From NCBI GenBank assembly GCA_003833135.1, contig QZLH01000001.1:325020-389019 (forward strand): a stretch of DNA of 64,000 nucleotides. The letters are read 5' to 3'. Shown piece after piece: positions 15,474 through 18,400 of the stretch. The translations under genes and the position numbers were made by a program. The stretch comes from Oehlia diaphana. Taxonomy: Eukaryota > Glomeromycota > Glomeromycetes > Glomerales > Glomeraceae. Each line of letters begins with the position of its first letter. Position 1 is the stretch's first letter. The notes beneath the pieces are model-generated. The model was not told where the DNA came from. It did not search any database and saw only the letters and a program-made list of their open reading frames with translations.

Positions 15474-18400
15474 TTACAAAAAAACAAAATTTACAATGAC
15501 TACAAGTGAATTATTGAAGGATAATGGTTTCAAAACTTTTTTTTTTTAAAAAACTAATTTAATTGAGTTAGTTTACAATTTACCTTTCTTTTTTAACAGT
15601 TTTGATAGTTTTTTAATATGTTCTATTATTAGTTTTATTTTTTTTTAAAAAAAAAATTTTTTATATTTTAATATAATCAATCAAAACAACTTTATAAGTA
15701 AAATATTATTAACTTACTTATAATACTAAATCTTTTCTTCAGATTTTTTAGGTTTCTTGATTTTTGCTTAACTTCATCTATAAATGAATTTAAACATCAA
15801 TCAATATATTTTTAGAATACATACATATACATATTATTTTAAATTTTTAACAATTATATTAAAATTAAAGCATTTTTACCTTTATAAATATTTAAGCAAT
15901 CTTGATTTTCTAAATTTGGTTTGGTCTTTTCATCTAATAAATTGTATAATTGTTAAATAAAATCAAAGATCAAATTAACATTTTATATAAACAAATATTA
16001 ACTTACTATATTCGATTATTTCGAATTGATTATTTGATTTATCAATTTCTTTAAAAAATAAAAATAAAAAATTAACTATTATTTAATTAAAAAGAATATA
16101 TATATATATATATATCTTATATTCACCTTTAATAATAATTGGTTTTATTAAATTTTCACTTTTGTTAAAGTTATCAATAACTAATATATTTTGAATATAA
16201 ATATTAAACTAATTGTAAACTTTAGAATTTTAAAACTTAATAAAAACGTGTTTACCTTTAGGAGTTTCTAAATTATCTTGTTTATCTAAACAAAATTTTG
16301 TAATTAACGTATACTTTTTTTCATGTTATTTATATAAAACTAAATATTTATTTACCTTCAATTGTATTGGATTTGGTTGAATTTTCGACAATTAATGAAT
16401 TTAATAAAATATCTAACAAATTTAATCAAATTAAGCCAATCATATAATTTCAAAATTTCAATAAATTTTTAATAATTTAAATACCTTCAGAAATTTCCAA
16501 ATTATTATGTTGTTCTATATCATTTCGCTCTTCTAAACAAAAGTTTTTATCCTCATCTAGAAAATAATATAAAATTAAATAATTACAAAACTTAATCATT
16601 AAATTTATTAAATTTACAAAATTATTTACCTTCAATAATATTTGATTTTAATATCAACTCATTATTAATATCTAAATTTAAAAAGGATAATTTGTTAGAA
16701 AAGCTTTACAATTAAATAGACTTTCAAACTTCAAATATTAATTATACTTGTAAATTCCAAATCATCTTGATTTTTTAAATGGTTTAAGCTATTATCAAAT
16801 TCTTTAAAAAATAAACAATAACAAATACAATGTATAATGTTAGTTTAAAATGAACTTACTGCTATCAACCGGTGTGCTAAAATTATATGGTTTATTATGA
16901 ATTACTATAAAATTCAAAATATTCATAAAAGTTATTACATTTAAAGAGATATTAAAGTAATTATTATTAATATTGTTTACCTTCTTGTTCTGTTTATTTA
17001 ACATGAAGAATGAGCATAATGAGGACATATTATAAATTAAATGGTTTCATTAATTATTTAAAAATAAAACGGTTTTATCTTACCTTCAGTTACATTTCTT
17101 GGTTCCGGTACTTTTTTATCCTCAGAAATTTCCATATTATTTTGTTCTTCTGAATGAAAATCTGTATTATTGTATATTTCATTCTCATCTAAAAATTAGT
17201 AAGATATTTTATACAATTTCAAAATTTTACCAAAATAAGATAAATACAAAATAATTGATTAATTTACAAAATTATTTACCTTCAATTACGCCCAATTTTA
17301 TGATATGATTATACGGTTCATTAATGTTATCAATACCTATTTTAATAAAGATAGTATCTTTATTAGAAAGTCCAAATAAATAGATCTAAATTTCAAACAT
17401 TATAGTACTTTTGGATTCCGAATCATCTTGATTTTCTATCGGGTCATTATCAAATTCTTTTACTAATTATTAAAATGGATAAATAAATATTATATATTTT
17501 TATAATGTCAGCTCATAATGAACTTACTGTTATCAACTGGTACATGGGGTTTACTATGAAATGCTATAAAAATCAAAATATTAACCAAAGTTATTATATT
17601 TAAAGAGATATTAAGTAATTATTATTATTATTTATTGTACCTTCTTGTTCTGTTTATTTAATATGAAGAAAGCATAATAAGGGCATATTATAAATTAAAT
17701 GATTCGTTAATTATTTAATAATAAATAAAACGTCTTTACTTACCTTCAATCACATTTTCTGATTCCGGAACTTTTTTGTCTTCAGGAATTTCCATATTAT
17801 TTTGTTCTTCCGAATGAAAATCTGCATTATTGTATATTTCATTCTCGTCTAAAAATTAGTAATATTTATTTTCAAAATTTTACCAAAATAAGATAAATAC
17901 AAAATTAATTAATTTATAATATTATTTACCTTCAACAACATTCGATTTTGAGATATGATTATACGGTTCATTAACGCTATCAATACCTATTTTAATAAAG
18001 ATATCTTTATTAGAAAGTCCAATAAATTAAATAAATAGATCTAAATTTCAAACATTATAGTACTTTTGGATTCCGAATCATCTTGATTTTCTATCGGATC
18101 ATTATCAAATTCTTTTACTAATAATGAAAAACGGATAATAATAAATATAATGTATTTTTATAATGTTAACTCAAATAAACTTACTGGTATCAACTGGTAC
18201 ATAAGATTTATTATGAAACGCTACAAAAATCAAAATGTACATAAAGTTATTATTTAAAGTATTAAAGTAATTATCATAATAATTATTTACCTTCTTGTTG
18301 TGTTAAATTAAGTTGATATTAATAAATAAGTATGAGTTAATAGTTGATTCATATAAATGCATTATTATCTTACCTTCAGTCGCATTTCTTGGTTCCGGTA

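What the first reader, a model, noticed from the sequence alone, without database searches (positions are those of the whole stretch)
15474..18293. Array of ~23 tiny, mostly symmetric phase-1 exons forming the tail of a pseudokinase
Downstream of the kinase exons the minus strand can be read as 23 consecutive small exons (3-105 nt), 22 of them internal. Each is flanked by plausible GT and AG sites. Each internal exon has a length divisible by three and phase 1 at both ends, and no in-frame stop was met. The total coding length (2487 nt) also closes in frame. Symmetric phase-1 exons can be skipped, duplicated or shuffled without breaking the frame, so this locus could make very many tail isoforms from one gene. 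I know of no described fungal gene with such a cassette tail. The frames and sites are seen; use and function are inference.
Basis: partly seen in the sequence, partly recalled or inferred. Interest (0 to 1): 0.9.

Follow-up and report, generated by a model that had tools for sequence, protein, structure and literature searches.

The report
Dead kinase with tiny-exon tail
A probably dead kinase gene in a root-symbiotic fungus carries a long tail built from 22 tiny exons that can each be copied or dropped without breaking the reading frame; relatives in the same fungus share a shorter version, but it is not shown that the cell makes many tail variants.

Summary
On the minus strand two kinase exons are followed by 22 small internal exons (3-105 nt), all multiples of three and phase 1 at both ends, plus a terminal exon to 15474. 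Four database models of what appears to be the same gene (three from Rhizophagus irregularis, one from R. clarus) carry the tail, and whole exons missing from the R. irregularis models begin and end at these exon edges. It is not unique: a tail of about six phase-1 exons is shared by a large Rhizophagus kinase family. This gene holds three tandem copies of a five-exon version plus seven further exons; another gene has eight consecutive 69-nt phase-1 exons. Tail dN/dS is about 0.3. The HRD aspartate is lost, also in R. clarus. 'Very many isoforms' is untested: models differ in exon content, but predictor error would do the same, and each of 22 introns brings an in-frame stop if retained. Against: splice weights from unrelated introns recover only 9-11 of 22 introns. 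Microexon cassettes are already described, in truffle genes among others.

The parts
19262..19840 (-). exon 1, N-terminal part of the kinase-like protein (579 nt, phase 0/0)
   Evidence: 187 of 193 residues as in P0001
18374..19181 (-). exon 2, most of the kinase domain, ending FENLPEPRNATE (808 nt, phase 0/1); HRD reads HQN
   Evidence: Pfam PF07714 on P0001 and P0002; 262 of 269 residues as in P0001
18291..18293 (-). exon 3, 3 nt (E), unit 1; looks like what is left of a 9- or 12-nt EQE/EEQE exon whose acceptor CAG reads CAC
   Evidence: P0001 reads NATEEAFH (as if included), P0124 NATEAFH (as if skipped)
18185..18220 (-). exon 4, 36 nt AFHNKSYVPVDT, unit 1
18064..18117 (-). exon 5, 54 nt IKEFDNDPIENQDDSESK, unit 1
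17930..17986 (-). exon 6, 57 nt, unit 1
17744..17848 (-). exon 7, 105 nt, unit 1; about 69 nt like the family DDEIYNNPNLHSEEQ exon plus 36 nt that resemble the end of exon 2 (25 of 36)
17641..17649 (-). exon 8, 9 nt EQE, unit 2
   Evidence: absent in P0125, present in P0001 and P0124
17528..17563 (-). exon 9, 36 nt, unit 2
   Evidence: absent in R. clarus P0002
17409..17462 (-). exon 10, 54 nt, unit 2
   Evidence: absent in P0125 with edges at the exon edges
17280..17336 (-). exon 11, 57 nt, unit 2
17084..17188 (-). exon 12, 105 nt, unit 2, like exon 7 (last 36 nt identical to the end of exon 2 at 30 of 36)
16981..16989 (-). exon 13, 9 nt EQE, unit 3
   Evidence: absent in P0001, present in P0124 and P0125
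16860..16904 (-). exon 14, 45 nt, unit 3
16748..16801 (-). exon 15, 54 nt, unit 3
   Evidence: absent in P0124 with edges at the exon edges
16630..16671 (-). exon 16, 42 nt, unit 3; P0001 ends after it in EGK, as if the next intron were retained
16485..16556 (-). exon 17, 72 nt, unit 3 (no LPEP-like extension)
16356..16412 (-). exon 18, 57 nt
16256..16285 (-). exon 19, 30 nt (or 21 nt from 16276)
   Evidence: DKQDNLETPK in P0124, DNLETP in P0002, absent in P0125; 21-nt form
16127..16180 (-). exon 20, 54 nt
16007..16048 (-). exon 21, 42 nt
15880..15933 (-). exon 22, 54 nt
15718..15777 (-). exon 23, 60 nt, basic
15584..15622 (-). exon 24, 39 nt KHIKKLSKLLKKK, basic

Best explanation
The gene is a probably dead member of the expanded kinase family of Rhizophagus. 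That family has a shared low-complexity C-terminal tail encoded by about six tiny phase-1 exons between short introns. In this gene most of that tail stands three times in tandem, as units of five exons. The copied stretch probably ran from 36 nt inside the end of exon 2 to the end of the 69-nt exon, which would explain why units 1 and 2 end in 105-nt exons (69 + 36) while unit 3 ends in a plain 72-nt exon; seven further exons with a basic end follow. Because every internal tail exon is phase 1 at both ends, copying, loss or skipping of whole exons keeps the frame, so the tail length can change freely in evolution. I think the short introns (58-102 nt) are mostly removed constitutively, and that variation comes mainly as truncation by intron retention and occasional loss of the smallest exons. 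The tail probably works as a disordered acidic docking arm with a basic end on a non-catalytic kinase scaffold. Shown: exon structure, homology, unit pattern, spread through the family, loss of the HRD aspartate, dN/dS below 1. Inferred: the copying path, constitutive splicing, lack of catalysis, disorder and docking.
For: Same tail in P0001 (94% identity over 63% of the tail query) and P0002 (R. clarus, 58% over 99%), and in P0124 (90% over 99%) and P0125 (88% over 97%). Whole exons missing from the R. irregularis models have edges at window exon edges: exon 15 in P0124; exons 8, 10 and 19 in P0125; exon 13 in P0001; P0002 lacks exon 9. Frame-aware models of 31 paralogous tails: 147 of 161 junctions after the first are phase 1 (10 phase 0, 4 phase 2); 2-9 internal exons, six in 17 of 31, 22 in the window gene. 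A typical tail matches 193 database proteins; the 120 listed are named from R. irregularis, R. diaphanus, R. clarus and Glomus cerebriforme. Tail dN/dS median 0.33 in the 40 pairs with lowest kinase dS; unit 1 against unit 2 0.31, Fisher p 0.007. Last 36 nt of exon 12 and exon 2 agree at 30 of 36. A second array: eight consecutive 69-nt phase-1 exons in L062. HRD aspartate kept in 27 of 29 fetched paralogs (L053 has HKN; L032 was not matched by the motif), lost here, in P0001 and in P0002. Tail acidic and of low hydropathy; mean pLDDT 21-29 in each ten-residue block of 421-760 of P0002.
Against: Splice weights from exon1-exon2 introns recover only 9 or 11 of 22 introns. Introns of units 1 and 2 are more alike (263 of 283 aligned bases, 34 gap columns) than their exons (223 of 252, no gaps); for the other unit pairs too introns (82%, 78%) are not less alike than exons (78%, 77%). 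Unit 2 against 3 and 1 against 3 give dN/dS 0.64 and 0.40, and in the same paralog pairs the kinase exon has a higher ratio (0.59) than the tail; tail dS may be inflated by misalignment. The intron after exon 2 resembles those after exons 7 and 12 only moderately (53 and 54 bases of about 80), so the breakpoint inside exon 2 is a guess. P0001 stops after exon 16, and P0124 and P0125 begin near the end of exon 2 or just before exon 4, without a kinase domain. The structure model is poor throughout (mean pLDDT 42.4; 26-45 over residues 301-380 inside the kinase domain too), so low values in the tail are weak evidence for disorder.
Confidence: 0.7

Rival explanations
1. Cassette generator: the tail exons are alternatively spliced in many combinations, so one gene yields a large, regulated set of tail isoforms.
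For: All 22 internal exons are symmetric. The window reading and four database models have five different exon contents, with whole exons missing at exon edges, and different C-terminal ends.
Against: The models come from different assemblies; models of this family that lack large pieces of the kinase region (P0005, P0010, P0016, P0034) show that they are unreliable, and tiny exons are what gene predictors miss (general knowledge). Each of the 22 introns brings an in-frame stop if retained, 7 of them right after two codons. Short introns favour intron definition, under which exon skipping is the rarer outcome (general knowledge).
Confidence: 0.15
2. The transcript normally ends in or just after exon 2, reading into the first tail intron to the stop at 18303, or the downstream exons are decaying copies that are seldom used.
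For: The exon 2 frame runs open to a stop at 18303; P0001 ends as in a retained intron after exon 16; the kinase itself has lost catalytic residues; exon 3 has a damaged acceptor.
Against: Four models in two species run far through the tail; no stop or frameshift in 22 exons; dN/dS about 0.3 in tails.
Confidence: 0.1
3. The exon chain is a chance reading of AT-rich sequence.
For: Introns are 15% G+C, sites are abundant, and weights from unrelated introns do poorly.
Against: Conserved protein sequence in two species, 193 proteins with a typical tail, 141 genomic matches to the 69-nt exon motif; controls give one third 3n exons against two thirds.
Confidence: 0.02

Closest known systems
Expanded kinase family of Rhizophagus irregularis (PF07714/PF00069; 2,533 kinase genes counted in PMC10234402, passage seen)
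   Same: Same kinase region, same LPEPRNATE, EEQE, AFHSK and NPNLHSEEQ tail modules, same phase-1 small exons
   Different: Three tandem tail units, 22 internal tail exons instead of about six, HRD aspartate lost, glycine-rich loop shortened in the window gene and P0001 (intact in R. clarus P0002)
NACHT-ankyrin (nank) genes of the truffle Tuber melanosporum (Iotti et al. 2012, not read; passages in PMC4986451 and PMC10197012)
   Same: Fungal multi-copy family with several frame-neutral microexons, symbiotic fungus
   Different: Exons codon-sized, in sensor regions of an NLR, alternative splicing reported; here a kinase tail, exons 3-105 nt, splicing variation unproven
Micro-exon genes of Schistosoma mansoni (PMC10526429, start of abstract and passages)
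   Same: Many tiny exons, mostly multiples of three
   Different: Secreted proteins, introns from 100 to almost 5000 bp; here a kinase-like protein with introns of 58-102 nt (secretion not tested)
Aphid bicycle genes (PMC9168663, start of abstract and passages)
   Same: Many small internal exons of one phase in a diverging family linked to plants
   Different: Phase 2, effector candidates, not a kinase tail
Brown algal ROCO LRR exons (PMC11378527, abstract and passages)
   Same: Equal-sized same-phase exons (72 bp there, 69 nt in L062) in tandem, multiple splice variants reported there
   Different: Phase 2, each exon one LRR; here phase 1 and probably disordered

Membership tests
Rhizophagus expanded kinase family | Kinase domain PF07714/PF00069 | tested here: met
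   P0001 and P0002 score 125.8 and 119.6 bits to PF07714 (the window protein itself was not scanned); a 192-residue piece of exon 2 has 150 matches in the genome, itself included
Rhizophagus expanded kinase family | C-terminal LPEP.NATE, EEQE, AFHSK and NPNLHSEEQ tail modules in phase-1 exons | tested here: met
   in diverged form (EQE, AFHNK, NNADFHSEEQ)
Active protein kinases | HRD catalytic aspartate | tested here: not met
   HQN in the window gene, P0001 and P0002; the aspartate present in 27 of 29 fetched paralogs
Active protein kinases | DFG motif and ATP-binding lysine | tested here: met
   ISDFG and VILKRL present
Alternatively spliced cassette arrays (as in truffle nank genes or schistosome MEGs) | Symmetric tiny exons | tested here: met
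   22 of 22 internal tail exons 3n, phase 1
Alternatively spliced cassette arrays (as in truffle nank genes or schistosome MEGs) | Several isoforms from one gene shown by cDNA | not testable with these tools
   No RNA reads held; database models differ in exon content but come from different assemblies
Schistosome micro-exon genes | Secreted product with signal peptide | not tested
   none
Brown algal exon-shuffled receptors | Each exon encodes one folded repeat (LRR or TPR) | tested here: inconclusive
   Pfam gave only kinase families for P0001 and P0002; structure model of low confidence

The most novel reading that the evidence does not exclude
The phase-1 tail arrays of the Rhizophagus kinases are a genome-wide exon-cassette system: tails are enlarged again and again by tandem exon copying in separate genes and spliced into variable combinations, so that many kinases and pseudokinases, in hyphae holding many nuclei, present changeable docking arms.
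Probability: 0.13. Interest if true: 0.85.

Novelty: new variant of a known kind. Interest (0 to 1): 0.52.

Why it matters
Rhizophagus has thousands of kinase genes (2,533 counted in R. irregularis, PMC10234402), most of unknown role as far as I know. A shared tail built from frame-neutral microexons, enlarged with different units in at least two genes of one genome, is a concrete route by which such a family can diversify without breaking frame, and it poses a directly testable question: whether the exons are also mixed by splicing. It also warns that automatic gene models of this family disagree at exactly these exons.

Tried and rejected
Considered and rejected: chance reading of AT-rich sequence (homologous proteins); a unique gene; a 3-nt exon as the original design (9 nt in units 2 and 3, 12 nt in most of the 31 paralogous models); kinship with the SP7 effector family of the same fungus, which has repeats and a conserved intron before the first repeat (passages of PMC11333574) but no kinase domain that I know of. 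Led nowhere: splice weights from exon1-exon2 introns and the AlphaFold model of P0002 (mean pLDDT 42.4). Literature: searches showed no paper on the tail exons of these kinases, but only open-licence papers are held, the listings were cut (20 of 1,540, 30 of 45, 20 of 157, 15 of 473) and I read only the passages cited. In one search my translation started in the wrong frame; one search gives the right one. A note says 8 introns stop within two codons and 28 of 30 loci keep HRD; recounting searches gives 7 of 22 introns, and 27 of 29 paralogs that keep the aspartate (26 HRD, one HGD).

Rows dropped or limits: one search used 24 of the 29 fetched paralogs (only those whose models are phase 1 throughout) and its medians are over the 40 pairs with lowest kinase dS of 276; pairs share members and are not independent. 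In one search, 3 of 31 tails gave no chain (L045, L047, L055). Most paralog tails were read for only 1.5 kb downstream, so their exon counts are lower bounds. The comparison of units 1 and 2 leaves out exons 3 and 8.

Full report
What is there. The window lies in a 108.8-Mb assembly whose proteins are close to Rhizophagus irregularis: exons 1 and 2 of this gene agree with the DAOM 197198w protein P0001 at 187 of 193 and 262 of 269 residues. On the minus strand the kinase exons 19840-19262 and 19181-18374 are followed by 22 small internal exons down to 15584 and a terminal exon to 15474. All 22 have lengths divisible by three and phase 1 at both ends; their introns are 58-102 nt, mean 78; exon G+C is 25%, intron G+C 15%.

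Is it more than chance. A frame-blind chain finder (splice weights and intron length only) with weights from 120 introns of paralogous tails recovers 21 of 22 introns of this gene; at cost 8 all 22 internal exons are multiples of three, and at costs 0-6 the chain runs on past the gene with 23 or 24 of 25-27. Those 120 introns were found with weights from this gene, so this is partly circular. Weights from this gene alone, run on 31 other tails, give 133 of 198 exons of length 3n, 100 of 130 among the first five, against 22 of 67 on the reverse strand and 112 of 332 in shuffles, the controls being unanchored. With 22 exon1-exon2 introns as training set the chain recovers at most 9 of 22, or 11 of 22 with intron-internal weights, where paralogs give 176 of 419 3n and the reverse strand 141 of 422 (cost 1). 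Splice sites alone would not prove the array.

Homology does. A search with the tail finds P0001 (684 aa, DAOM 197198w), P0002 (843 aa, R. clarus, 58% over 99% of the tail) and, weakly, the family member P0003; a search with a shorter query adds P0124 (404 aa) and P0125 (339 aa, RhiirA4). Each of these four models of what appears to be this gene lacks some exons. In the three R. irregularis models the missing whole exons begin and end at exon edges read from the window: exons 3 and 15 in P0124, exons 8, 10 and 19 in P0125, exon 13 in P0001 (for the EQE exons the exact edge is ambiguous by one E). P0002 lacks exon 9 and parts of exons 7, 15, 19 and 20, and differences of one or two residues occur inside exons of P0001 and P0124. 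P0001 and P0124 end as a retained intron would make them end (EGK and GKL); P0124 and P0125 start near the end of exon 2 or just before exon 4. These differences may be isoforms, genomic differences or predictor errors; other models of the family lack large pieces of the kinase region (P0005, P0010, P0016, P0034), which calls for caution.

The family. A piece of exon 2 has 150 matches in this genome, itself included, out of 1,900 candidates of which 150 were scored. In 31 paralogous tails modelled with free phase after the first junction, 147 of 161 junctions are phase 1, and 17 of 31 have six internal exons, typically 12, 42, about 60, about 54, about 57 and 69 nt, coding EEEQE / AFHSKxYDFNIPDN / I.DFNKSS... 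/ ...SKKLSKVFKKLQI / ... / DDDDEIYNNPNLHSEEQDELEIPD. A typical tail (that of L054) matches 193 proteins of 279 candidates; the 120 listed are named from R. irregularis, R. diaphanus, R. clarus and Glomus cerebriforme. The 69-nt exon motif has 141 matches at E up to 1; in that list, read by eye, only this gene (2) and one on contig 595 (5) have copies closer than 1 kb on one strand.

How this tail arose. Units 1 (exons 3-7), 2 (8-12) and 3 (13-17) repeat the same five modules. Exons 7 and 12 are 105 nt, a 69-nt module followed by 36 nt that resemble the end of exon 2 (25 and 30 of 36 bases), while exon 17 is 72 nt without that extension. The simplest reading is that the copied stretch began 36 nt inside exon 2 and ended with the 69-nt exon, twice; the intron after exon 2 resembles those after exons 7 and 12 only moderately. 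By eye R. clarus P0002 has three units too, so at least part of this predates the split; units 1 and 2 are nevertheless very alike even in their introns, which suggests later exchange between them. A second gene, L062, has eight consecutive 69-nt phase-1 exons that alternate NVQSSYKIETMQKQEEKHYTNVD-like and DDDDIYNNPNIHSEEQNELELPE-like modules, each flanked by AG and GT, and database proteins P0003 and P0009 show repeats of the same kind. Tail expansion by tandem exon copying has thus probably happened more than once, with different units.

Constraint and function. In the 40 paralog pairs with lowest kinase dS the tail has a median dN/dS of 0.33, the kinase exon 0.59; units 1 and 2 give 0.31 (11 of 44 synonymous against 18 of 208 non-synonymous sites changed, Fisher p 0.007), units 2 and 3 0.64, units 1 and 3 0.40. 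The tail is therefore most likely protein-coding and kept. Against simple constraint, introns of the units are as alike as or more alike than their exons. The kinase carries HQN in place of HRD, also in P0001 and R. clarus, while 27 of 29 fetched paralogs keep the aspartate: a pseudokinase by motif. The tail is acidic (net -0.11 per residue, -0.19 over the three units), low in hydropathy, with a basic last stretch; the AlphaFold model of P0002 has pLDDT 21-29 over residues 421-760 but is poor overall. A disordered docking arm on a non-catalytic kinase is my inference. Retention of any one of the 22 tail introns gives an in-frame stop, in 7 of 22 right after two codons, so retention would produce a ladder of truncated tails.

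Compared with what is known. Arrays of small same-phase or frame-neutral exons are known from schistosome MEGs (PMC10526429, passages), aphid bicycle genes (PMC9168663, passages), brown algal ROCO receptors (PMC11378527, abstract and passages) and, among fungi, truffle NACHT-ankyrin genes (mentioned in PMC4986451 and PMC10197012, passages; the original paper was not read). I saw no paper on the tail exons of the Rhizophagus kinases in searches, which cover open-licence papers only and whose listings were partly cut. I therefore call it a new variant of a known kind; the isoform claim stays open.

Noticed in passing
L062 (G000:C595:67300-70300), 1284-2374: A second kinase gene has eight consecutive 69-nt phase-1 exons, two alternating modules, each flanked by AG and GT: a more regular array than the window's.
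   Followed up: partly
window 18220-17084, minus strand: Four introns of tail unit 1 and unit 2 are more alike (263 of 283 aligned bases) than four of their exons (223 of 252), as if introns were constrained or exchanged between units.
   Followed up: partly
paralog pairs listed: In the 14 pairs listed the kinase exon has lower dS (0.07-0.25) than the tail of the same genes (0.20-1.55), which may point to gene conversion of the kinase exon, or to misalignment of tails.
   Followed up: no
window about 11670-13485 (-) and about 43357-45500 (+): Two paralogous kinase genes in the window have short versions of the same tail: by eye three small exons with a stop in the third (the model adds a fourth), and about four or five small exons.
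   Followed up: partly
proteins P0005, P0010, P0016, P0034: Database models of this family from R. irregularis DAOM 181602 lack large parts of the kinase region, so annotation of the family is unreliable or it is spliced very irregularly.
   Followed up: no
L053 exon 2: Another paralog has lost the HRD aspartate (HKN), so pseudokinases probably arose more than once.
   Followed up: no
window 50682-53374 and 57494-60203, minus strand: Two very similar neighbouring genes (von Willebrand-type region, name from recall) that look like a tandem duplication, seen in the open frames.
   Followed up: no
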